Positions 26,813 to 40,179 of a DNA stretch of 64,000 nucleotides are shown here, in pieces (position 1 is the stretch's first letter; each line of letters begins with the position of its first letter). The stretch is from NCBI GenBank assembly GCA_027382625.1, contig JAJKFJ010021899.1, positions 1 to 64,000 on the forward strand. Reading direction: 5' to 3'. The position numbers and the translations under genes were made by a program. Origin of the DNA: Tetmemena sp. SeJ-2015 (Eukaryota; Ciliophora; Spirotrichea; Sporadotrichida; Oxytrichidae). The notes under the pieces are model-generated. The model had not been told where the DNA came from. It did not search any database and worked only from the letters and a program-made list of their open reading frames with translations.

Positions 26813-27019
26813 GGGTTTGAGCAGAGGAGTGGATGGACCTGATAGCTTCCCCACCCAAAGGAGAATCACTTCTCGGGGCCCATCCCGTTCCTTAAATCCG
26901 GGAACATTCGTAGTGCGAAAAGCACTATTTTCCTCCACACCCATGTGGGGACGGGGAAAGGGCCTTTCCAGAGAGCCCCGAAAGAGCTTTCATGGGTTCA
27001 TCTCAACCCAGGAAGGGCG

Positions 27020-27480
27020 CTGGATGAATTGGGATGTGAAGAGACATCCGAGAGAGCATGCAGATGAAGAGCATGGACAGGGAGGCAGAGCGCAGATCCG
27101 CATCATAAGTTTCATGCCTGCTGAAAGTAGAGGGAGAAAGCATTTACCCTTGCGCTCCAAATGCAGATCAATTCCTACAGCAAGCAGAGGGAACCTCAAC
27201 ACAAACTGACTCTTGAAGGCTTAGATTCACCTGCAAGCTCAATAAGATGCTCAGATCCTCGAGCAGAGCTGCCTTTAACCTATTCTTAAACTGAGGGCAT
27301 GAAGTCAGGGTGCCTCATCCTGGAGCCGAGGCGAGCTGTAGAAGAAGAGAACAGCATACAAATATAGAAGGCCAGATGCAACTTCTTGAGCTCCACAATG
27401 AAGCAAAGAGGTGGAAGAACTCAAGTAAGAAGTTTTATAATAACCCCCAAATCTCAAAATAGAGCGCAATTTAGAAAATT
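27020..27480 (+). pseudogene. Decayed accessory ORF of the transposon
   Basis: In successive plus-strand frames there are coding-like stretches: RDIRESMQMKSMDREAERRS (about 27040), VSCLLKVEGESIYPCAPNAD (about 27110), then after a TGA and frame change LDSPASSIRCSDPRAELPLTYS...EEENSIQIQ (about 27225-27380) and MKQRGGRTQVRSF (about 27400). TBE elements carry two accessory ORFs (about 22 and 57 kDa) besides the transposase, and this could be one of them. No zinc finger or kinase motif could be confirmed. Confidence 0.3.
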
Positions 27481-28239
27481 AAGTAAAAGTTACAACCAGA
27501 TAAAATCAAATCCGTTCAACTTTGAGATCGCAGTTGGGAAATGAAAATCTAAGTTGGAGGAGTGTCCGAACGATTTCACTTCACCCTATGAGAAGTAGAA
27601 GAGGGCTCATCAACTTACATGATGAGTAGAGCCATTCCCTTTCCAGGGCTTATCTCAACTTGTGTGAGACCTCCTATGAAACTCTTCGTTCTAATCAAGG
27701 TTCACAGCTGCACGAGAAGAAGAAAGCCTTGATCGCGCAGACCTTCAGTATTAAAGAGAAGTTGAGCGCCTTCCAGGCTTCTTGTATTTGCACGAGAAGA
27801 GTGTGCCTACAAATTCTAGAAGTTAGAGCAGAGAGGAGTGAAGGAATGCATAACTAGCAACCAATATAAAGAGAACAAACTCTTTTCAATAGAGCACCTT
27901 TTGTCTTCTGGGCTTGCTTCACCTCTGTATTCGAGGATCTCCTATCCTACTATGAGTGAATAGCTGCGATGAGCATCACAGGCATATGGAATTACACTGG
28001 GAATACCTTCAAAGGATTCGAATCGATAACAAGCAATATCAGAAGACCTCTCCGAGCAGGGGAAGCTTCTCCCACACACGCGTAAGGAGTTTCTATGACG
28101 AGAGCGCAAGGAGGTAGGACCTTTTCACTTCTCCTCAACAGTATGAAGAGTACTCAGAGCTCAGAAGAAGGCAGGAGGCACACAAGATAGGTCACAGCAA
28201 AGAACAGTCGGACATGGCAGACCGGGGTCAAAAGCTTAC

Positions 28240-29290
28240 TCAAATCTTTCGCATCTCGAGAGCATCAAGAGCATAAGGTATGCAGCTGATGAAACTGGCC
28301 TTAACCCAATGCCACTGCAGAGCTGAAATGTGAGTCTGAAGCCAGCCTACGAACTCACTCCGAGACCGAGGTGGAAGGCGGTTCTCGTGGTCCCTCTTGA
28401 TGGCAGCGAAGACTTTTTCTACTGGTGCCAGCTAGAACTGATATGGCCCGAGGAAGATCACAGACAGCTGAAGAAGACGCATGGATTTCAATATCTCGGC
28501 GCTGCGGTGGTAAGTGGCGTTGTCGAACAAGATGCTTGACCTTGCTCTCCAGTCAAGATTCTCCTTGTCCATGTACTCAGTGAGCTCCAAAGGAGAAAAC
28601 TCTTTACTGTCAGAGAGTTGTTTCGGCCAGAATGAAGAGCGTATACCAGGCGTCCGTCGCTGAATGAAGCCGCTACCACACTCAAGCCATACACTCTCTG
28701 AAGGTTATCTACATATGACCTGCTTCCAGACACGCCCCATCCCTTACGCTGATATGATTAGGTCTGTATCGAGCTCTCATCGATGTTGATGATGAGGCGA
28801 TCCTCACTAAGCGCCTTTATATAGTGCGAGGCAGCCAGCTGCCTTTGCCAGAGGCAGGTTTCCATATTGGTCCTGACATCGAGAGTGTAGACTTTTTTGT
28901 AGGACATCCCTAGCTTGCTTTTCAGAATTCTCCTCAGCTTCCATTTCGAGATTTCTGCCCCAAGCACATTTTGCAGCTCTTCTTAAAGGATCTTCACTGA
29001 ACCTATTGGCTCATTTCTCTTCAATCTCCTGTCAACAACTCAAGAAAGCACCGCATCTTAACCTTTAAGAGTGAACGATCGCTTAAGGAGATCTGCTAGG
29101 CTTTGTCCTTAGCACTTTCCTAGTAGCTTATTGAGAGCATCGCGCTTGAGGCCGAAGCGGGTCTGAAGTGCCTTCTTTGAGCATCCAGCTTTTAGATGCA
29201 ATTGCACTACACGCTTTCACTGCCTCTCCTTTGTAACATCGGATAAAAGCTTCTACTCTTGAGCGCGCTTATTCTAAAAGTAAGAAGTAA
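28240..29290 (-). pseudogene. TBE-like DD34E transposase, degenerate
   Basis: Minus-strand Tc1/mariner/TBE-type transposase. The N-terminal part has a helix-turn-helix look (HLKAGCSKKALQTRFGLKRD, about 29200). The catalytic triad is readable: RLIINIDESS (first Asp, about 28790), SILFDNATYH (second Asp, about 28535) and LAPVEKVFAAIK (Glu), with exactly 34 residues between the second Asp and the Glu. It ends at TGA 28240-28242. Breaks: in-frame TGA codons near 29220 and 29040 and a one-base frameshift near 28600. The catalytic core is intact in sequence, so decay is recent. It uses few TAA/TAG Gln codons compared with neighbouring genes. Confidence 0.85.
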
Positions 29291-29346
29291 ACTTCAGATT
29301 TCAAGGTTTGAAGTACTTACTCTCTTTGAGACTATCTTCGGAACAT

Positions 29347-29670
29347 ATGGAGACCTTAAATTCGGACTTTCTTTCAAATTCTCCTCGAATAGAGTCTATT
29401 AGAAATGAGACGTCTCCTGCTCTGAATGAGGAGAAGGTCGCAACTTCGTTGCAAGCTCTCGAAGAGCGACAATCTCTGGCTTTGTTAAGACTCCTTCAAC
29501 TCCCGATGATCCCTCTAGATTACCAATCTAACGCCTTGGATCGAGGATCTGTACTGGAAAGACTCGCCCTTCTAAGCGTGTCAGTGCTTTAGCCTCCATT
29601 TCATCGAGCGATCGCTAAGTCAACGGGAATAGTGGCTTTGGAGCATTATCCTAAGAGAGCACGATGATAA
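29347..29670 (+). CDS. Transposon-zone ORF, unrecognised
   Basis: An ATG-started open frame just beyond the transposase 5' end, in the opposite direction: METLNSDFLSNSPRIESI..., then EEKVATSLQALEERQSLALLRLLQLP. Leucine-rich and helical, about 107 codons to a TGA at 29668-29670. Coding-like composition and a head-to-head position suggest a TBE accessory ORF, but no homology motif is visible and the opposite strand is partly open too. Confidence 0.3.
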
Positions 29671-32600
29671 GACCAGTAGTCTAGCAGATCTCTTCTTCAC
29701 GATCTCTTTCACGGATCTCCTCCTATTCGGCATATTACATTTCCTGAACTTCCTGCGTCTGGCTGATGCGATGCCTTATTCCTGGTAAGTATTGCTCAAG
29801 AGTTGTCTGCAGGTACGACAAATTTTATTGGAAATTTCCCCCCAAAAGGGTAGAAAGTTTTTCTTTCTTTTTTGAGGGGGGGGGAAAAATAAAGGTAGGA
29901 TTCGGTAGAACTAGCTACTTACATTTTATATTAAGATTAATTATCTGTAATTGGGCCCCAGGGAAAATAATTTAAATTTAAACCCAATTGGGGAAAGGGT
30001 CCTCGATCAAGAGTTTGGTTTGGGAAAATATTGGCGGGGATGGAAAGACCCTGACCCAATTTAAAGTAAAAGAGGTGAAGCAAAAATCGGGAGCAAGAAG
30101 GGGGCTCTACGATTTCCCCATCAAGAATGTGGAGCGTAACCGCCGAAATGAACTGCCGAACATCTACTTTTTCCCGAAGGGATCCTCACAGGAGAGAAAA
30201 AGGTAATTTAAAATACTTTAAAATTCCCAGCATTTGAAGCCAGGGATGGGCATAATGGGAGCGGTTTCCACAGATAGAGGGTTTTAACAGTGAAAGGGCT
30301 TTTCCTTTATTACGCCCCGGGCAGACCTTTTTCTGATACCCATACCTCCCAGCTAGTGCGAGGGTTCATTTGGGTAAGAAGTGGATCCCCTGATATGCTT
30401 TTTTTCACTCGACACTGAAGGGATTTAACGCGATAATTTTAGAAGGCTAAAATTGCGAGGCGAGAGAAAACTCGAAAGGGGTTAGAACTCTTTTAGTCCA
30501 CAAAGAAGCCAAAAGTTCGCCCAGTGCTCTTCGAGGTCCCATACATTAAACGGTAAACATCCCCTTTGGGAGTCTTACATTCGAACAGTATAGAAGGGTC
30601 GATCAGCATTCCTGATTAAGCAGAGCGCAAAACGAAAAGAGCGACCAGGGCAGATAACAGAAGAGGTCAAAGAGCCTCTTGGTACATCGAAGCGCAAGAC
30701 TTAGTATATGCAAGAGAATAAGCGAGTCCGGGATGAGATTGGGTAGCTGAAGGATCAAGTTGACGATCTCCTTGGCTACAAGCAGCTGGTCTTTGATCTC
30801 CACGAAGGTGGGGTGATCGACCATGAGGGAAAGCCTCAGATAATCGCAGCTACCTAATAGTAGAATGATTTGATGGAGTGAACTTATTAATTTTTAATCC
30901 CTTAATTAAACTAACTAGCCGGTAACTTATTAATTTTATTTCGGATGCTCCAATCCCACAAATATGGAGCCGAAGAAATGGATTCCCATCTGTCTCAACT
31001 CGAGATATCATTCACACCAGCGGGGCGACGCCATACATCCCGCCGAAGCAAGCAGGGAGATCAAAACCCCCCAGTCATGGTCTGGGCCCCAGTGGGTGGT
31101 ATCATCGACTCTGATTTAAACCCCCGAATGGGCTAAGTTCAAATGCCCTAAAACCCTCTCTTTTCCCAAAAACCCCCGGGGGGGACCAGCGGGGAGTTTA
31201 TGCCAAATGGGCCCAAAAAGTCGTTTTGATATGCCCCGCACCACATCCATGCGCTTAGCTTCCCACATGGGCGGGTTTATCCCTGATGGCGGGATGCGAT
31301 GACTGGAAAATCGGACGGGGGATGAAATAGAATCGCCATGACAAGGTGAGGCTTTGGGTCGACCCGCTTGATTGGAGTGATCTTTCGGGGAAGTTTAGAG
31401 ATGGCCCTTTATAGGCTCTAATGCCAAAAGTCATAGGCAACTTGAGGATGTTGGGGGAAGGGGGAAAGCCTGTCTGGGGATTTGGCGACCCGACAAACTC
31501 CCCCCCTCTAGGGGATGGCTCTCAGTGCACAAGGAAGATGCGCAGCACCCTCCCCTTTCCCCATCCAGTCGGGGGGCCTTTAATACTTTTGCGAACTGCC
31601 GGACCATTTGGGAAGGGTGGACCAAGGGGGCAGCGAAATTTAGCCCCGGGGGGCCCCGAGATCAGCAAAAGCTTAACTATCGCTGATAGCTCGAAGATAG
31701 GTGGCCGCTTCGGCTCCCCGTACATATGCCCCCGTTATTCCCGAAAGCTCTCTAAAAGCTTAATTGAAAATCATAGCAAACCCGAAGCAGAACGGGGTGA
31801 GTCGAGGGGGGAGGGCCTAGGGGATTCTTTACCACTCATTTGCGGGGTAAAGCCCGCCTTTAAGGGAGAGGAGATTCGACAGCCGCAAACTTTTGGGGTC
31901 CCCCCGATAGGTCTCTTAGTTGAGCTGGTAGAGTTGTGTTTAACTCATGGGCAGAGCAAAGCCTTGTCCAATTTTAGATGATAGAGGAAAATGGGGAAAC
32001 TTGTTCTTACTTTCTCTTCAAAGGAGATAGCTTGAGTATCTAGATAACCGTAGGAAATTTCCACTCTCTACTGTATGGCTTTGACATATGCTTCAGCAAG
32101 ATTGCGCTGAGCATAAGTTCAGGCCTCATATCAAAGGCAAGGATCTCTTAAAGTTGTGATTGGCAGGCTCGCTTTACCCCGGCACTGGAGCTTTAAATCC
32201 GGGGGATGAGGGAGAAAAAGCTTTTTTCCGGGAAAAAAACAACCGCCCGTTAGAAGGAGGCCCTTTGGAGAAGTGACCGCGCCATTGGTTTAAACCCCAA
32301 ACACGCGCTTTGGGAGCCCGGGGGTGCTTTGAAGAAAGGAGGGATTCTGCCGAGGATCACTTCATACAACCCAGGAGAAACTTAGGGCTCGGAAATTGTG
32401 AGGAGGGAGGGGATGCTGCAAATCTGGCCCCAGATCCCAAAAAGGCCCCGTCAACGGGAAGTGGGACCGGAGACTTTTTGAGGGGAGGTTTTTTGCGCAT
32501 TCTGGCTTTTAGGGGGCAGATAAGTGGGGAGGGCGGGCCCTGTCCTCTGCGAGTGGAAAGGAAATGCGTTCATGCTTTTTTGAGAAAGCGGGGTCTCCTT

Positions 32601-33194
32601 TGGGGTGGAGGAGAGATGAGTTGGAAGGGGAAAAGAGGGAAACCATCGATTTGGGGTTGGGTTTGACTTTTCATTTTTCTATATCCTCAAAAAACCCCAG
32701 AATCTTTAATGTTGCGAGCTCTTAAGATGAAGACCTACTTGCATCTCTTATTCATGGTTTTCTCTGCTTTCTTTCCTCCCTGTTTTATTTAGACCCTTTT
32801 TAAATTTTATAAGTTAAATAAATAAGGGGAGGCTCGTAAACATGGCTATCGTAAATTTACGAAATAAGGGGGCTGTGTACTATCTGGGACGCATTTAACT
32901 TCCTTTAAAATCAGGAAGGGGGTCCTGGGAGTAGGGAATGCGTGACTTTAGGAAGAAAATGAGGGGCTATGCATTATCGGGGATGGGCAAAAGCCCCGAC
33001 AAAAATAGAGGGGGGACTTTTTTTTAGATAAACGGTGGGGGGCAAAAATTTTTATTCTGAATGCGGGCCCCGCCATTTTTTAAAATCTGACCAGGATATA
33101 GAGGTCAGGTCTAACGACTCTATTGAGTCTTGTCACGTGCAATTAAATCTGCACATTTCTCATCCCTTAACTCTATCTCTCACCTTGGGTAATT
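29671..33194. other. GC-rich sequence without coherent genes
   Basis: About 3.5 kb with many G/C homopolymers and long chance ORFs on both strands but no conserved domain that holds up. One fragment near 31040-31110 (PPVMVWAPVGG...DSDLNP) faintly resembles the VMVW block of Tc1-type transposases. No RNA gene recognised. Confidence 0.5.
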
Positions 33195-33217
33195 GGGGTT
33201 TTGGGGTTTTGGGGTTT
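33195..33217 (+). repeat. Internal telomere-type G4T4 repeats
   Basis: Almost three units of GGGGTTTT in tandem, embedded in non-telomeric DNA at the AT/GC composition border. Hypotrich macronuclear telomeres are C4A4/G4T4, and TBE transposons end in 17 bp of this repeat facing outward as here. The best reading is the right terminus of a TBE-like element. Confidence 0.85.
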
Positions 33218-33425
33218 ACAAAAATAAAACAATTATTTATGCTCTTATCTATTTTACCAATAGTTGTTAAATTTTATTTTAAACTTCACTATTACATCCA
33301 AAATCGTATAAAAAATTAATTATTTTAAAAAGTCAGAGGAGCTGAGAATCACAAAAATTATTTGTAGATAGGACAAGTCAGGAGTATGAATTTGATGTGT
33401 AGTGTTTGCCTTCTTTGCAGAAAGA

Positions 33426-33596
33426 ATGGTTGCCAAAGTAGATTATGTGATAATTTTACAACAATACATTTTGCAATATGGCGTAAAGAACTTATATTCT
33501 GAAACCAAGGACATAAGTGTGCTCAGAAAGGAATTGGTAAGATATTTACAGTCTGTTTATATTGAATACATACAGTTTAAAATATACTTTGATTGA
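33426..33596 (+). CDS. Small ORF upstream of the TBC gene
   Basis: MVAKVDYVIILQQYILQYG...SVLRKEL is read from ATG 33426; a GT..AG intron at 33537-33575 leads to a short end and a TGA at 33594-33596. About 43 residues, too short to classify. It might be a separate MDS of the neighbouring scrambled TBC gene rather than a gene of its own. Confidence 0.35.
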   Translation: MVAKVDYVIILQQYILQYGVKNLYSETKDISVLRKELVRYLQSVYIEYIQFKIYFD

Positions 33597-33623
33597 CAAG
33601 AAAGGGTTGTTTGAGTTATAATC

Positions 33624-36365
33624 CAAGAGAAAAAGATTAGAGCTAAACTTGAAAAGGCTTTTAATGCTCTTGAAACAGGATATACCATGAGTATCTGAAA
33701 TATATAGATAACAAGCTCTACCAACATTTAATGGATAACTAAGTATCCCCGGAGCTATAACTAATGAGATGGAGAGAACTAATTTCTATAGAGAGTTCAA
33801 AATAGAGTACACTCTCATGTATTGGGATTTCATATTTGGAGGAATCGAATCTAAGCATAAGGCAGAACCAAAATCTAAGTCCTAAGAATTTCTGGCAATT
33901 GATGATGACCCTCTAGCTTTCCACGACTATCTTTGTTGGAATTTAAAAATTAAACATAAAAAATGACTTGCTAGAGAGTGATTTCAGTATGTGCTTCGCA
34001 CTTATGCTTAATTATCCCGAACCTAATGTACCAGAGAATTTAATGAAGTATGCGCTTAAGATAAGAGAGAAGATTTATTAAAAACTAGTGAGATAGAGTT
34101 CCAAAGACAAAAGTACTTTGATCTCATTTTATTTGAATCCTCTCACAGACAACAATTACTAAAAAAGAATTGAAAGGTATCTATAACTTTTATTGGAAAA
34201 TTATTAAAATTTGGAATAAACATAATGGAAACATCAGACTTTATTGAGTATCTATACTATCAAATGTCTTTATCATATCTTTAGCATCATTTATAATGTG
34301 ATATCTCTTATTTATAATTAATACTAATCATTTAGAACCCTCTTGGATTCTCGACTCTGAATAGAGACCGTTTCAAGTTGAACTTTATCGAGCAGTTTCA
34401 TGTGGATCAATACAAGGACTTGAGTTTTAAAGGAGACTTACTGAGAGCAGGTAGCAGGACGTTTTGCTGGAGACTATTCTTGGGCATCATTCCCGAAGAG
34501 AAGAATTTTGTAAAGTGGGTATAGAGTATAAGGAGTGAGAGACAAACTTTCTATAAAAAGTCAGATTTTTCTTTAACACAAAAAATAAAGACCTTGATCC
34601 TAAGATCTTCAATCCTTTAGAAGAAAGAAATAATAAGGAGAACAACCCTTGGAATAACATGTTTAAGGATAAGGAAATGAGAGAGCTAATTACACAAGAT
34701 ATTGATAGGACAATCTCTCATGTAAATTTGTGAGAGGTATGAATTTTTCTAGGAAAAGAAAGTTAAAGACATACTCATTGGCATCCTATTTGTTATACCT
34801 TATTTTTTTGTATTTCTGTGGGCGAAAGAAAATGAGATTATTTGAGGGATGAATGAACTGCTGGCAATAGTTGTGTTTGCCTATTTAAAAGTAGATTACG
34901 ATTACATGGATGCATAATTGTGATTAAAATTCAGATGACTTGATAGGATTTATTTTTGACTCAAGGCACACTTTTGCAGACATTTACTATACTTTCGATT
35001 GCATTTTGCAATATCAAAGTTGTTATACAAAGTTCAAAGACCATGACGAGCCCAAGAACCTAGACAAGAAACTAATTTTTGAGTGGAAGCAAAGAAGAGA
35101 CTACGAAGAGAATAATGTTAAAAAGGCTTATGAGCAAGAGAAGTCTAAGGTATTTATTTTAATGTGTGAATCTTCAATTATATTTTAGTCAGTGATTATG
35201 AAGAAGTGCAACAGAATATGCTAATATAATTTATAAGATGGCTCAGGTGTGTGTTAAGTAGAGAGTTCTTAATTATACTCATAAATTTAATATTGAAGAC
35301 TCAATACATAGGGATCTCTGAACGGAGGCTTAAACTCTGGTGCCAAATTAGTTTTTAGATAAAATTCCTTAAAGCAGTAAAGCACTACAAGTTTGAACTA
35401 GGAAGAGATGCTTCGGAAATAAAGGGATCAGACTAAAGCAGCAGCAAATAAATGGCTATTGCAATTATAGCACAAAGTAGACAATAAAGAGTTATCTAAA
35501 GCTATAACTGATCTGAGAGATGCAATAAATCTACTCAATCAAAATTGAAACATTGATATTTATAGATATGAAAGTTTTAATTTCCTAATATCTTCTTATC
35601 AATATTAAAATAGCAATCCTTTAGCAGCGCACGTTGAGAACAACACATAATTCAAGAAAATCCAGAGACAGCTTATAAGCAAGGGATGAGTCAATAAAGG
35701 TTATTCAGATTGATGCAGAGACAATTGCTTAAAATTCATTTGATCTACATTATCCTAATTATCTTTGTGTTGCTATGATTCTGAACATAAAAACTATCCA
35801 TAATTAGAGAAGATTAAAGAAATGTAAAACTATAACCCTAGTAAGAATAGCAATACGAAAAAAGTAGCAGATGTAATAGCAATCACAAACTTAAGATTAA
35901 TAATCAGCTTAGAATTAAAATTCCTCGAACAAAGGTGGACAAGGAAGCTCAATAAATCAACAATACTTGAATCCTCTCACTTATACATGCTATTTAATAA
36001 TTTCATCTCAGCAATTACTAAAACCTCAACTCAGGAATTGGAAACGGTCTTAGTTCAGCTCAAAATGCGGGCTTGAATAATCCTTATATGGTAGATTAGG
36101 TGGAAGGTGTCTAAAATCCCTACATAAATAAACAAGAGGAGGAGAAGACTTCCAAGTCAAAGTTTCCTTTCATCTCTCCATTGTCTAATTTTGTACAAAG
36201 AGATATTCTAGGATAGAAAAGTAAGGACGACAAAAAGAGGAATTCTTAACTCAATTATAATTATGGCTATGATGGTGCCATAGATCCCCTCAGATAATAT
36301 ATAAACAATTTATAAAGCAGCAGTCAGGAAACTAACGAATGTGGATAATTTCCTAGATGAGTTAT
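33624..36365 (+). CDS. Scrambled TBC-domain RabGAP (TBC1D5-like)
   Basis: Encodes a TBC Rab GTPase-activating domain, closest in pattern to TBC1D5. The germline order is not the coding order. The N-terminus starts at ATG 34225 (METSDFIEYL), passing LRAGSRTFCWRLFLGIIPEE, FNPLEERNNKENNPWNNMF...DKEMRELITQDIDRT, EKKVKDILIGILFVY and GMNELLAIVVFAY to about 35142. It continues at 33624-33772 (KLYQHLMDNQVSPELQLMRW), jumps to 35236-35268 (RWLRCVLSREF), returns to 33789-about 34200 (EFKIEYTLMYWDFIFGGIES, NDLLESDFSMCFALMLNYPE) and ends with a low-complexity/helical C-terminus from about 35310 to about 36365. Pointers: CAAGAGAA, AGATGG and TAGAGAGTTC. The last junction, one in-frame TGA near 34850, and smaller interruptions are unresolved. 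Confidence 0.85.
33773..33788 (+). other. 16 bp spacer between non-consecutive MDSs of the TBC gene
   Basis: Lies between MDS 2 (ending in pointer AGATGG at 33767-33772) and MDS 4 (starting with pointer TAGAGAGTTC at 33789-33798). The coding MDS 3 that belongs here is 1.46 kb downstream. Confidence 0.85.
35236..35268 (+). other. 33 bp MDS 3 of the scrambled TBC gene
   Basis: Bounded by AGATGG (35236-35241) and TAGAGAGTTC (35259-35268). It encodes RWLRCVLSREF, matching the RW(V/I)RxLFxREF core of the TBC domain. Both boundary words recur at the partners, 33767-33772 and 33789-33798. Confidence 0.88.
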
Positions 36366-36532
36366 GGCACAAAGAACTAACCTTATGCAATATTAAAATT
36401 TAATATTAAAGCATTTATGATGATCTGAGAGAAAATTTGTAGGCTTTTTTCAATTATGAAATAATAGTAAAAGATTTCTGACTTAATTATATCTATTAGC
36501 TTTGCAAAATTTAAATAAAACTCACACTACAA

Positions 36533-37985
36533 ATGGAAAGCCTCCCATCTAAAGTGAATGCAAATTTCTTAGTCTCTGGTGAAAAGAACGAAGAAAGCGC
36601 CGAAATCATCACTGTTTCCAGCGAAGATACTTTGGTAAAAAAGCTAAAGACTCATTTGGCAGTATTCAGTGGTTTGTTGCTAGTCAAGCTGGGATCTGAA
36701 GTGGGTGCACTTGAACAAGATGAAGTATGGTTTGACTTAAGAGATCTCAAGAAGAGCTTGGAAGAAGTCAAGGACGAAGCTGAAAGAGTTAAAGATGTTG
36801 AGTAAGAATTGGAAATTACAGCTAATGCAGTTGTGAACTAAATAGTTTAATCTATAATTTTAACTTCATCAAGGGATACGACATAGCTGTAGTAGAACAA
36901 TCAAAAGCTTTTTCAGGAGTGAAAGCCTTCCATTGCTTCTCAAGGTTGTTGCAACTTAAAAGAATGGATGACCTATTTGATCTTAAAGCTCTCAAGAACT
37001 TAGTTTTTGAGAACCACCCGATTCTCATTTTGCATTTTATTACAATAAGAGTTAAATTGATGCATGATATTGGTGGCTCTGTTCTCTATAGAACTGATGC
37101 GAAAGTAGATGGAGACAGAAAAGTTGACTTTTAAGTGAGGAAGCATATCCACTATTTCAGACCTAGCAAAGACGTCTACCTCAAGTTCATTTGTGTCGTA
37201 GTTTACTTGTGTTTTAAATTTGCGAGCACCCCAGAGTGAAATTTGCCTTTTACACAAGCATCATGAGAAAGAATGTGCTTCCTCTCCTCATCAAATTATT
37301 TGAGTCTCCAGAGCTGCGCCACAGCAAATCAAAAGTATTTGAAATCCTTGACTAGGAGTATAACATCCCCGACCTCACTCCTGAAAGAGAGTCTTGGGCC
37401 AGAAAGAGACATCTTCCTAAAGTGTTTGAGAATTAAGAATATTCATATTTTTAAATTATGAAGAATGAAAAGGTGAAGAAGCTTAACTTTGGTTACCACA
37501 ACACCATCATATCCACCAAATTAGCAATACCTAAATTATAAACTTAAGATGATTGTAATGATAGTTGATACTGAACCTTAAAACTGCCTTGATCACGTTG
37601 AAAATAGTTTGATCGTCCCCTCCTACACCAAAGAAGCTTTAAAAATGCATATTTATTTACAAGTAAGCTGTTGAGAGACCTGAAACTGACAACAGTTTGG
37701 AGTTGCTTGCAGAGATGAAGAGTTTCTTAGGCAAACTTTTAGAGGAGGCAGACGATGTGCAAGAGTATTTAGCTGCTCATCCCAAGTACAGAGTCCCAGA
37801 GATGTTTATCAAGCCCAGATCAGTTCCTATCAAAGAAAACTAGCAGGAGTACATTCTTCCTCAAGAAAATATTATTCTATTTCTTCTTTTTTAAGAGGAA
37901 AAAAATGAAGAGTCTAAGAAAAGCGAAGATAGTAAGATAGAGGAGCTCAACAAAGCACTTATGCACACTCAAATTAATAATGATT
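36533..37985 (+). CDS. Unrecognised protein; gene contains an inverted MDS
   Basis: Starts at ATG 36533 (MESLPSKVNANFLVSGEKNE); an acidic helical region (LRDLKKSLEEVKDEAERVKD) follows. An IES (36836-36865) is removed to give VVNFIKGYDIAVVEQSK, then RLLQLKRMDDLFDLKA. The next coding piece is on the minus strand (37227 down to 37073: TQVNYDTNELEVDVFARSEIVDMLPHL, then a SIENRATNIM end). Plus-strand coding resumes at 37260 with MRKNVLPLLIKLFESPELR. Further segments: IVMIVDTEPQNCLDHVENSLIVPS, SLELLAEMKSFLGKLLEEADDVQEYL and a Lys/Glu-rich tail (EESKKSEDSKIEELNKAL) ending at TGA 37983-37985. Frame changes near 37530, 37660 and 37845 are unresolved. Function unknown. Confidence 0.6.
36836..36865 (+). 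other. IES (pointer AACT) in the inverted-MDS gene
   Basis: AACT at 36836-36839 and 36862-36865. Excising 26 bp gives ...NAVVNFIKGYDI... in one frame. Confidence 0.8.
37073..37227 (-). other. Inverted MDS
   Basis: A 155 bp coding piece in opposite orientation to the gene around it. One end: ATCATG read on the minus strand (CATGAT at 37073-37078) matches ATCATG at 37260-37265, where plus-strand coding resumes in phase (NIM|RKNV). Other end: GCTC on the minus strand (GAGC at 37224-37227) matches GCTC at 36988-36991 in phase. The ATCATG junction is well supported; the 4 bp GCTC pointer is tentative. Confidence 0.7.
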
Positions 37986-38116
37986 GACCCACAATGCAAC
38001 AAAATTTCTGCATAAATAACTTTTGATTGTATAGTTAAATTTATTGGCAAACTATCTAGGCTTTCATTTTATAAGTTAGAGCCAGCATTTTGTAATTTAT
38101 AATTAAAATCTAAGAA

Positions 38117-40179
38117 ATGACAGCAAATGAATGTGATTAAAAAATCCTGTGCGATAATTTAGAATTGACAAAGAGCATGTAGAGCAACATTAGCAACTTC
38201 TTTAAATAGCATTAAGTGTTTGAGCTTTTCCCTGATAATGCAAAGGTAATTTAATGATGGTTGTTTAAGTTGGTGTTTAGATTTTGATAATGAGTCATGA
38301 GTCAACTATTTAGCACTGCAAATGATCAATTTAACCTTTAAATTGATAATTTTTACTGCATTAACGCTATGGTGATTGAATAGAATGTGCATAGTTTTGG
38401 GGCTTGGGATTCAGATAACAAGCAACTTCTGGGAATGATTTCAATAAGAGATATGCTAGAAGTTGTAGTCTACCTCGCTTAAACTTTAAAAGAGGCTCTC
38501 TTGAAAGAACTACCAATATGGAATTAAACCCACACTGAATCAGCTGATAATTTGGGACAGTCTAGTTTAACAGAGAAGCAATTTATTCAGATCTACTTTG
38601 AAAAATACTTACAAATAAACCAGAGTACTTAGCAGCGAGGTATATACCCAATCACAGAGAGAAGAACTTTTAAAAGGATGGATAGTGGAATTCATCTCAG
38701 GCCTACAGGAGAGGCTGGATCTTAAGAAGGAGTCTCTAGTTCTAATTAAGTCGATTTTTCGATCCTGCCTAAAGTTCTTAGTAATTTGACCATACAAGAT
38801 TGGTTTTTAAAAATGCCTGAAGCAGTTCGTTTTAAGAAGATCAATGATTATAATGTTATTATATGAAGAGCTAACTGATCGCTTTTTCTATTGAGGACTC
38901 TATTTTTGACTTGGTGAATTTGATGAATAAGAAGGGGTTCAATCATGTAGGAATAATGAACAATTACGAGAGCCAGATCTAAGGATTCGTGACTTTCAAC
39001 GACATCATTCGATTCTTAGTGGATAACTATAATGGAGATTTAAGTTTCTTTGAGCAACCTCTTACTAGTTTAAATCAACTTTTATTTTTAAGTTTTACCC
39101 TGAACGTAAACGTGTTCCCATAGATTCCTAAACTTGTTTATGCGAAGGAGTCTGAGTCTCTGTTGAGTGTACTACTAAAAATGAGAGATAACAGGATATC
39201 ATGTTTACCGATAGAGAGGACTGTTTAACACTAAGTTGGTAAAGCAGGCACCTCAAATGAAGGTAGCCAAGGAAACTCCCCAAGCTTAGTGAGTGGGACT
39301 CGCACGATTGGAATTGCGTATCTGACGGACTTGATGTTTTTGTTTAGAGTTCCTGGCTGGTACAAGTATTTAAATGAACCAGTGCTGACTTTCATTACAG
39401 ACCTCAACGCTCTAGAGGAACCATAAACTGTTTACTTAAACTTTAATAAGTATTGGAAGACAATTTGATAGGAGGCCAAGGCCCAGATGCGCATATGTCT
39501 TTCTAAGAAGAAATTAAGGTGCAGGATTTCGATCTCTCATTAAATGATCAACATTCCAAAAAGTAGAAAAATAGCTCACCTCACAGAGACGGACTAGAAA
39601 AGAAAAATCAAAAGAGTCTACTTATAGATGATGATTAAAATTCTTATTCGAATTAGTTGCTAGTTATTAAAATGATTTCAATTCTGAGGAAGACAAAGAA
39701 GACTCGGATGAAGAGGACTACGAGGATGATGAGGAATACAAATTAGAAAAACAGAAACTCAAAGAAATGGCTCAGAAGATCAAACAACAAAATGTATCAT
39801 CTATCTCTTTACTATATTTATAAATGCTTAACTGCAGGCAGAGTAGAGACAAGATTCGAATATAAACTCTAACTAAATTGAAGGCGCGCCATCTTAACAC
39901 TTAAACCCAAGCTAGCATGTAAGCGACAGTGTGAATAGACTACAGAATTTAAGTAACTAGGATGTGGATATGGACCACTTGTTTGGACGAGTACTTGGAA
40001 TAGAGAGGGTGTTGCTAATGAAAAGGAATGACACTTTGAAAGATGTTATTGAGAAGATTTCTCTAATTCCCGAGAGTAAGTTAGTTTACATTGACGTGGA
40101 GGGAGATGGTTATCCTAAACTAAAGAACATCCTTTCTCTTACTGATTTGTTCAGGTACCTCGCCTCCCAACCTTAGTGA
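38117..40179 (+). CDS. AMPK gamma / SNF4-like CBS-domain protein
   Basis: Regulatory gamma-type subunit binding adenine nucleotides in CBS pairs and controlling a SNF1/AMPK kinase. Segments: ISNFFKQHQVFELFPDNAK (family-like N-terminus), a GT..AG intron at about 38246-38280, MVIEQNVHSFGAWDSDNKQLLGMISIRDMLEVVVYL (CBS1, 'aPLWD..GmlTitDfi'), SIEDSIFDLVNLMNKKGFNHVGIMNN...FVTFNDIIRFLV (CBS2), VLLKMRDNRISCLPIERTV with GIAYLTDLMFLF (CBS3), an acidic EEDKEDSDEEDYEDDEE insert, and VIEKISLIPESKLVYIDVE...LKNILSLTDLFRYL (CBS4). Stop TGA 40177-40179. It is longer than typical gamma subunits because of linkers. Several frame changes (about 38300, 38350, 38865, 39465, 39650) imply IESs. Confidence 0.82.

What the first reader, a model, noticed from the sequence alone, without database searches (positions are those of the whole stretch)
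33624..35268. Odd/even scrambled TBC (RabGAP) gene with three matching pointer pairs
The TBC-domain coding order is not the DNA order. Coding order: MDS1 (34225-35142), MDS2 (33624-33772), MDS3 (35236-35268), MDS4 (33789-about 34200), MDS5 (about 35310 on). Germline order is 2-4-1-3-5. Each jump is marked by an identical word at both ends in the same codon phase: CAAGAGAA (35135-35142 and 33624-33631), AGATGG (33767-33772 and 35236-35241), TAGAGAGTTC (35259-35268 and 33789-33798). Joining through them gives MRWLRCVLSREFKIEYTLMY, which fits the TBC core pattern RWxRxLFxREF. Seen directly in sequence; the MDS/pointer interpretation is established hypotrich biology. This particular scrambled locus is, as far as I know, undescribed.
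Basis: partly seen in the sequence, partly recalled or inferred. Interest (0 to 1): 0.92.

Follow-up and report, generated by a model that had tools for sequence, protein, structure and literature searches.

The report
Three-way scrambled ciliate RabGAP germline gene
A gene for a Rab-regulating protein lies in this ciliate's germline DNA as about 27 tiny out-of-order pieces in three interleaved rows, with short repeated words at the joints; the phenomenon is known, but this gene is far more fragmented than first thought.

Summary
The core of the finding holds: a TBC (RabGAP) gene is scrambled in germline-type ciliate DNA and can be reordered through repeated pointer words. The details change. 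Homologues and a pointer-constrained alignment point to about 27 segments over 33326-36374, not five. Joined without changing a base, skipping two putative 39-nt introns and an unexplained 87 nt, they read 620 codons from ATG to TGA in code 6; raw order has 18-27 TGAs per frame. True pointers beat 20 of 20 displaced controls for each of five homologues. The segments form three same-strand rows, each in coding order (6.3e-15 against random order): a three-way weave, not odd/even. Mechanism: unscrambling at pointers during macronuclear development (inferred). Origin by tandem copies with complementary decay is likely, but no leftover similarity was found. Four joints rest on frame, eye or very short words. 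No macronuclear copy was available. New member of a known kind.

The parts
33326..34164 (+). Row A of segments, in coding order: M2 33326-33357, M6 33367-33393, M11 33402-33445, M15 33467-33577, M17 33625-33660, M19 33674-33772, M21 33789-33936, M23 33953-34164
   Evidence: pointer-constrained alignment to homologues; assembled open frame; order
34225..35548 (+). Row B of segments: putative start 34225-34248, M1 34336-34565, M3 34577-34620, M5 34638-34713, M7 34737-34791, M8 34811-34833, M10 34845-34882, M12 34888-34914, M14 34924-35014, M16 35031-35112, M18 35121-35214, M20 35236-35268, M25 35357-35444, M27 35470-35548 (TGA stop 35546-35548)
35614..36374 (+). Row C of segments: M4 35614-35644, M9 35654-35689, M13 35712-35738, M22 35760-35793, M24 36012-36297, M26 36313-36374
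34554..34565 (+). Pointer M1/M2 TAAAAAGTCAGA (partner 33326-33337); next pointer M2/M3 CACAAAAA 33350-33357 / 34577-34584
   Evidence: found with P0001, P0003, P0014, P0017; not with P0002 or P0018
34610..34620 (+). Pointer M3/M4 CAATCCTTTAG (partner 35614-35624); M4/M5 GAGAACAAC 35636-35644 / 34638-34646
   Evidence: found with P0001 only; P0003, P0014, P0017, P0018 and the wider P0001 run read straight along row B here with a gap
34704..34713 (+). Pointer M5/M6 GATAGGACAA (partner 33367-33376); M6/M7 GTATGAATTT 33384-33393 / 34737-34746
   Evidence: P0001, P0002, P0003; P0014, P0017, P0018
34787..34815 (+). Conventional 24-nt IES between M7 and M8, pointer TATTT 34787-34791 / 34811-34815
   Evidence: taken as a jump; homologues lack these 8 codons
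34826..34833 (+). Pointer M8/M9 AAGAAAAT (partner 35654-35661); M9/M10 AGGGATGA 35682-35689 / 34845-34852. M9 carries the YKQ motif
   Evidence: P0001, P0002, P0003, P0008; P0014, P0017, P0018; motif
34873..34882 (+). Pointer M10/M11 GTGTTTGCCT (partner 33402-33411); M11/M12 AAAGTAGATTA 33435-33445 / 34888-34898
   Evidence: M10/M11 with P0001, P0003 and P0014; M11/M12 with P0003 only; P0017 and P0018 did not take the detour
34909..34914 (+). Pointer M12/M13 GATGCA (partner 35712-35717); M13/M14 TTAAAATTCA 35729-35738 / 34924-34933
   Evidence: P0003, P0017; M13/M14 also with P0014
35002..35014 (+). Pointer M14/M15 CATTTTGCAATAT (partner 33467-33479)
   Evidence: 5 of 6 homologues and 4 of 5 (P0006 does not cover it); 7 of 8 with the pointer bonus switched off
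33574..33577 (+). Pointer M15/M16 AGTT (partner 35031-35034), weakest joint; position uncertain
   Evidence: chosen by eye and frame, not by the alignment program
35106..35112 (+).
   Evidence: M16/M17 with P0014 only; M17/M18 with P0002, P0004, P0008, P0014, P0017; P0018 read straight
35210..35214 (+). Pointer M18/M19 AACAG (partner 33674-33678; similarity extends as AACAG[A/G]ATAT)
   Evidence: P0002, P0004, P0008; 4 of 8 homologues with the pointer bonus off
33767..33772 (+).
33928..33936 (+). Pointer M21/M22 TATCTTTGT (partner 35760-35768); M22/M23 AACATAAAAA 35784-35793 / 33953-33962
   Evidence: P0002, P0004, P0006; P0014, P0017, P0018
34153..34164 (+). Pointer M23/M24 CAATTACTAAAA (partner 36012-36023)
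   Evidence: P0006
36292..36297 (+). Pointer M24/M25 AGATAA (partner 35357-35362); M25/M26 TAAAGCAGCAG 35434-35444 / 36313-36323; M26/M27 GCACAAAG 36367-36374 / 35470-35477
   Evidence: words; M26/M27 by alignment with P0006; the M25 step by eye and frame (P0006 alignments made spurious jumps there)
33537..33575 (+). Putative 39-nt intron GTAAG..CAG inside M15
   Evidence: P0001 and P0003 predicted proteins both end within a few codons of this site; frame
35150..35188 (+). Putative 39-nt intron GTATTT..TTTTAG inside M18
   Evidence: 13-codon gap exactly here against P0002, P0004, P0008, P0014, P0018
35806..35980 (+). Alternative segment in row C (pointers AGAGAAGATT 34066/35806 and TTGAATCCTCTCAC 34133/35967) that could replace 34076-34132; its frame is off by one base as assembled

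Best explanation
This is a micronuclear (germline) locus of a spirotrich-type ciliate holding one scrambled single-copy gene for a TBC-domain RabGAP. About 27 macronuclear-destined segments lie on one strand in three consecutive rows (A 33326-34164, B 34225-35548, C 35614-36374), each row in coding order; the gene is read by hopping between rows. Shown here: the pointer words, the ATG-to-TGA frame restored without changing a base, the match of the joined product to ciliate-type homologues, the three-row order. Inferred from established spirotrich biology: during development of a new macronucleus, RNA-guided recombination at the pointers removes the intervening DNA and joins the segments, leaving one pointer copy per joint, on a gene-sized chromosome. 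Inferred, weaker: the rows arose by two local tandem duplications followed by piecemeal complementary loss.
For: Joined chain (27 segments plus the putative start; two putative introns and an 87-nt stretch skipped; no base changed) reads 620 codons ATG to TGA; raw order 33326-36374 has 18, 27 and 23 TGAs in its three frames and none of three frames over 33301-36902 gives a TBC hit; the joined 651-aa version scores 71.9 bits for RabGAP-TBC, cut-off 25.2. Identity of that version: P0001 60% over 241, P0003 58% over 231, P0006 42% over 320 with the same C-terminal NQN. Pointer-constrained alignment scores 634/647/493 (P0001/P0002/P0006) against 12 shuffles with maxima 85/134/84. With the allowed jumps displaced by 15-33 nt, 20 of 20 controls score lower for each of five homologues (634 vs at most 539; 548 vs 438; 644 vs 544; 487 vs 469; 617 vs 524). 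Germline order has only two descents, P = 6.3e-15 for 26 units in random order. In-frame TAA and TAG occur inside many of the genome's 100 listed TBC matches, TGA in few.
Against: No macronuclear DNA or RNA was seen: the only match of the locus found in the assembly is itself. The homologues that guided the joins are also those that the product is compared with, so the identities are not independent; the open frame and the displaced control are better evidence. Two joints rest on short words (AGTT 4, AACAG 5); M15/M16, M24/M25 and M25/M26 were chosen by eye and frame; several detours came with only one homologue (M3-M4-M5 with P0001, M11/M12 with P0003, M16/M17 with P0014) while others read straight along row B. 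The start (34225-34248 joined to 34336) skips 87 nt without a clean intron or pointer. The linker has two possible routes. Between-row similarity expected after recent duplication is absent: 25 gaps, summed z -0.03. With the pointer bonus off only four accepted words are recovered among 41 jump diagonals.
Confidence: 0.93

Rival explanations
1. A dead, shuffled pseudogene copy in the germline, with the working gene elsewhere.
For: Many frame breaks in raw order; 34225-34248 to 34336 and 35806-35980 are not clean.
Against: No second copy found in 146 Mb (one DNA match, itself; of 13 protein matches 10 are this locus, the next a TBC gene 37% identical on C2934). The joined frame is open over 620 codons without a base change.
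Confidence: 0.03
2. Assembly or sequencing artefact (chimeric or collapsed repeats).
For: No reads available; one possible extra A at 35859-35864 on one route.
Against: 25 scrambled joints in three ordered rows within 3 kb, with repeated words, in frame, matching homologues are hard to get from misassembly.
Confidence: 0.02
3. One reading: five segments in a simple odd/even order, joined through CAAGAGAA, AGATGG and TAGAGAGTTC.
For: Words present; two of the three joins are right; CAAGAGAA was used once, with P0002.
Against: 13 in-frame TGAs in that chain read from ATG 34225; its MDS2 changes frame inside; it omits SVIMKKCNRI and the row C pieces.
Confidence: 0.01
4. Same scrambled locus, but with 29 segments: 35806-35980 is used between 34066-34075 and 34133-34164, giving a 651-aa product. 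This is a variant of the best explanation, not an exclusive alternative to it.
For: 10- and 14-nt words at both ends; KIKE resembles KMKE of P0006; local scores favour it with P0006 (564 vs 550), P0002 (837 vs 828), P0017 (790 vs 785).
Against: Frame off by one base as assembled, needing a miscounted A or a hidden 10- or 34-nt IES; P0004 (557 vs 562) and P0014 (878 vs 881) favour the other route, P0018 is equal.
Confidence: 0.45

Closest known systems
Odd/even scrambled genes of Oxytricha trifallax, Tetmemena and Euplotes woodruffi (Feng et al. 2022, PMC9797194; passages seen)
   Same: Permuted segments, direct-repeat pointers, separate germline clusters merged into one gene
   Different: Three rows instead of two; no residual similarity between segments and the DNA they replace, unlike many E. 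woodruffi pairs as the paper reports
Highly scrambled and nested loci of O. trifallax (PMC5940158; passages seen)
   Same: Pointer list of repeated blocks; ours, in its 29-segment form, clears in one step of my own block-removal rule modelled on it
   Different: So not of the irreducible kind; interleaving with other genes was not examined here
Scrambled chromosomes of Halteria, Strombidium, Oxytricha and E. vannus (PMC10901763; passages seen)
   Same: Short scrambled segments
   Different: About 14 segments per kb here against a reported 6.4 per kb for scrambled O. trifallax chromosomes
TBC-domain RabGAPs (Pfam PF00566); TBC1D5-like by recollection and by the database name of hit P0022
   Same: Domain score, IxxDxxR and YxQ motifs (motif definitions recalled), ciliate and apicomplexan TBC proteins among the named hits
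   Different: Subfamily not established; solved-structure hits only to yeast Gyp1, with the draft query

Membership tests
Scrambled micronuclear gene of spirotrich ciliates | Coding segments out of order in germline DNA | tested here: met
   that the DNA is germline is inferred
Scrambled micronuclear gene of spirotrich ciliates | Direct-repeat pointers at consecutive segment ends, in matching phase | tested here: met
   25 scrambled joints, mean word 8.9 nt; displaced controls lower in 20 of 20 shifts for five homologues
Scrambled micronuclear gene of spirotrich ciliates | Ciliate code (TAA/TAG as Gln) and G4T4-type repeat | tested here: met
   In-frame TAA/TAG in many TBC matches, joined frame open with TAA/TAG read as Gln; G4T4 repeat 33195-33214 at a repeat-element end; chromosome telomeres not examined
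Scrambled micronuclear gene of spirotrich ciliates | Macronuclear chromosome carrying the joined segments with one pointer copy each | not testable with these tools
   No such sequence found
Strict odd/even pattern | Exactly two alternating rows | tested here: not met
   Three rows; joints AB 13, BC 9, AC 3, plus one conventional
Duplication-and-decay origin | DNA between segments n-1 and n+1 resembles or matches the length of segment n | tested here: not met
   25 gaps: summed z -0.03; length correlation 0.10, p 0.71, 18 pairs (29-segment form). Compatible with an old event, so the model is not excluded
TBC/RabGAP | PF00566 above cut-off | tested here: met
   71.9 bits against 25.2
TBC/RabGAP | Arg and Gln finger motifs IxxDxxR and YxQ (recalled) | tested here: met
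   ITQDIDR in M5, YKQ in M9
TBC1D5 subfamily | Closest kinship to TBC1D5 among TBC proteins | tested here: inconclusive
   One hit bears that name (P0022, 28%); no tree made

The most novel reading that the evidence does not exclude
The locus is a true three-way weave: three collinear tandem copies of one gene, each piece kept in only one copy and all three pairs of copies exchanging directly (AB 13, BC 9, AC 3 joints). That would extend the two-copy odd/even duplication-and-decay model to repeated local duplication, and would make this gene a worked example of its late, fully decayed end state.
Probability: 0.4. Interest if true: 0.58.

Novelty: new member of a known kind. Interest (0 to 1): 0.42.

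Why it matters
It shows that a heavily scrambled gene can largely be solved from germline sequence using distant homologues and pointer words, without macronuclear data. An ordinary domain search misses it: the profile search of this genome listed 100 TBC matches, none on this contig. A three-row weave, if common, is a sharper test of how scrambled genomes grow than two-row odd/even loci.

Tried and rejected
First alignment settings made jumps too cheap and over-fitted; raised. At the stricter settings weak regions still drew spurious jumps, including to the minus strand; I did not use those. Pointer-blind alignment recovered four of the accepted words among 41 diagonals, so it is weak support. 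Flank similarity: ungapped tests null (p 0.51, 0.40); gapped tests p 0.016 and 0.039 are confounded by neighbouring pointers. A TGGTGCCA..AGATAA pair (36273 and 35338, same 19-nt spacing; words) and a GACAAGAAA..TTTGAGT match between 33596 and about 35063 (seen by eye's alignment, z 2.0, p 0.03, one of 25 gaps) look like relics; I made no formal multiple-testing correction but do not count them as evidence. Species identification by 18S failed because the tool did not complete. Seven paper searches listed no paper that I recognised as describing this locus or a three-row gene; I read passages of three papers only, and Burns 2016 and Gao 2015 were seen only as citations in those passages.
Full report
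Setting. The window is the first 64 kb of an 86-kb contig (C2922) in an unnamed 146.2-Mb assembly of 5213 contigs. Many of the 100 listed TBC matches elsewhere in it contain in-frame TAA and TAG, few contain TGA, as in the ciliate code where only TGA stops. The species was not identified; the 18S search did not complete.

Observation. In raw order no frame of 33301-36902 gives a TBC hit, and the frames of 33326-36374 hold 18, 27 and 23 TGAs.

Finding the real order. A rough protein drew 13 homologues, including P0001, P0003 and P0006 (51, 46 and 57% over 54, 52 and 22% of that query); tblastn of these against the locus placed their fragments in jumbled order. I wrote a local alignment that lets the path jump between two genome positions at a cost that falls with the length of the identical word shared there, on both strands. 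At the stricter settings (33200-36700) it scored 634, 647, 548, 427, 493 and 291 for P0001, P0002, P0003, P0004, P0006 and P0008, against 296, 235, 211, 191, 163 and 106 without jumps; 12 dinucleotide shuffles reached at most 85, 134 and 84 for P0001, P0002 and P0006, the three tried. Wider runs (32000-38500, both strands) with P0014, P0017, P0018, P0001 and P0006 repeated many joints but not all: P0014, P0017, P0018 and P0001 read straight over M3-M5, P0017 and P0018 over M10-M12, P0018 over M16-M18, and weakly conserved parts drew spurious jumps.

Control on the pointers. If the allowed jumps are displaced by 15-33 nt (plus strand only, a few lost at the edges), 20 of 20 displacements give lower scores for each of five homologues: 634 against at most 539 (P0001), 548 against 438 (P0003), 644 against 544 (P0002), 487 against 469 (P0006), 617 against 524 (P0014). 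A pointer-blind run recovered CATTTTGCAATAT (7 of 8 homologues), AACAG (4 of 8), TAGAGAGTTC and AGATGG (one each) among 41 jump diagonals; most segments are too short to be placed by protein alone. The locus has 50 pairs of identical 10-mers against a mean of 24.1 in 30 shuffles (maximum 39) and 10 against 1.6 (maximum 6) for 12-mers, but 3 against 0.6 (maximum 5) for 13-mers, which is not outside the shuffles.

The joined gene. Twenty-seven segments joined at 26 joints (25 scrambled, one conventional 24-nt IES at 34787-34815), with two putative 39-nt GT-AG introns and an 87-nt stretch at 34249-34335 skipped and no base changed, read 620 codons from ATG 34225 to TGA 35546-35548. A 29-segment variant using 35806-35980 gives 651 aa but only if one A is dropped or a hidden IES assumed; homologues do not decide (P0006 564 against 550, P0002 837 against 828 and P0017 790 against 785 favour 29 segments; P0004 557 against 562 and P0014 878 against 881 favour 27; P0018 equal). 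The 651-aa version is 60% identical to P0001 over 241 residues and 58% to P0003 over 231, scores 71.9 bits for RabGAP-TBC and finds 50 proteins, the two best from Moneuplotes crassus (39 and 38%). These identities are not independent of the joins, since P0001, P0003 and P0006 helped to choose them. The IxxDxxR motif lies in M5 and YxQ in the 36-nt M9 of row C, so the Gln finger appears only after joining (motif definitions recalled).

CAAGAGAA was chosen in one alignment (P0002), followed by AAAAGGCTT back to 35123, so that 35123-35134 would be used twice. P0014 gave AAGAGAA 35106/33625 instead. In the joined chain AAGAGAA keeps the frame and gives DYEEKKIRAKLEKAYEQEKSKSVIMKKCNRIYHE. Support for that exact word is one homologue plus the frame.

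Weak points. Joints M15/M16 (AGTT), M24/M25 (AGATAA) and M25/M26 (TAAAGCAGCAG) were set by eye and frame. M18/M19 has a 5-nt word with one mismatch in a longer match. M3-M4-M5 came with P0001 only and M11/M12 with P0003 only. The N-terminal eight residues rest on weak similarity to P0001 alone.

Three rows. In germline order the segments read 2 6 11 15 17 19 21 23 | 1 3 5 7 8 10 12 14 16 18 20 25 27 | 4 9 13 22 24 26: two descents, P = 6.3e-15 for 26 units in random order; all lie on the plus strand. Joints are AB 13, BC 9, AC 3 and one conventional BB. The pointer list of the 29-segment version clears in one step of a block-removal rule that I modelled on PMC5940158, so it behaves as a compound of odd/even pairs and not as an irreducible locus. 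Density is about 14 segments per kb, median 55 nt, against a reported 6.4 per kb for scrambled O. trifallax chromosomes (PMC10901763, passage).

Origin. Feng et al. (PMC9797194, passages) support duplication and decay: the DNA between segments n-1 and n+1 should resemble segment n. Here 25 gaps show no overall similarity (summed z -0.03; 8 gaps of similar length 0.78) and lengths do not correlate (rho 0.10, p 0.71, 18 pairs). So either the duplications are old, or short-repeat recombination built the pattern; the collinear three rows favour the first by inference only.

Copies and neighbours. The DNA search found no second copy; of 13 protein matches 10 are this locus, the next is a TBC gene 37% identical on C2934. 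The genome-wide TBC profile search listed 100 matches and none on C2922. Immediately to the left (26.8-33.22 kb) is a dispersed element with 59 listed matching stretches including this copy, only 40 of 153 candidates having been scored, with DDE_3 transposase matches below Pfam's cut-off (19.5 and 24.9 bits against 28.6), ending in G4T4 repeats at 33195-33214, in the manner of telomere-bearing elements (recalled).

Verdict. Known kind, striking member.

Noticed in passing
26823-33218: About 6.4-kb GC-rich dispersed element, 59 listed matching stretches in the genome including itself (40 of 153 candidates scored), with DDE_3 matches on the minus strand within 28240-29039 (sub-threshold) and a right end of GGGGTTTTGGGGTTTTGGGG at 33195-33214; resembles telomere-bearing elements, but no exact C4A4C4 left end in the window (one 1-mismatch site at 31165-31176).
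   Followed up: partly
36273-36297 and 35338-35362: TGGTGCCA and AGATAA occur in both places with the same 19-nt spacing, directly upstream of and into segment M25: possible relic of the end of M24 in row B.
   Followed up: partly
33596-33617 and about 35063-35084: GACAAGAAA and TTTGAGT shared at equal spacing in the row A gap between M15 and M17 and in M16: possible decayed copy of M16 (gap alignment z 2.0, p 0.03, one of 25 gaps).
   Followed up: partly
38860-39021: CBS-domain coding stretch (48.3 bits) in a neighbouring gene; its order was not examined.
   Followed up: no
36533-36840: Open coding stretch beginning MESLPSKVNANFLVSGEKNEES; the one frame of 36541-38040 that I scanned gave no Pfam match, but that was not the frame of this stretch.
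   Followed up: no
34249-34335: 87-nt stretch between METSDFIE and NPLGF ending TACTAATCATTTAG like an intron, but I found no in-phase GT donor by eye; intron or IES unresolved.
   Followed up: partly
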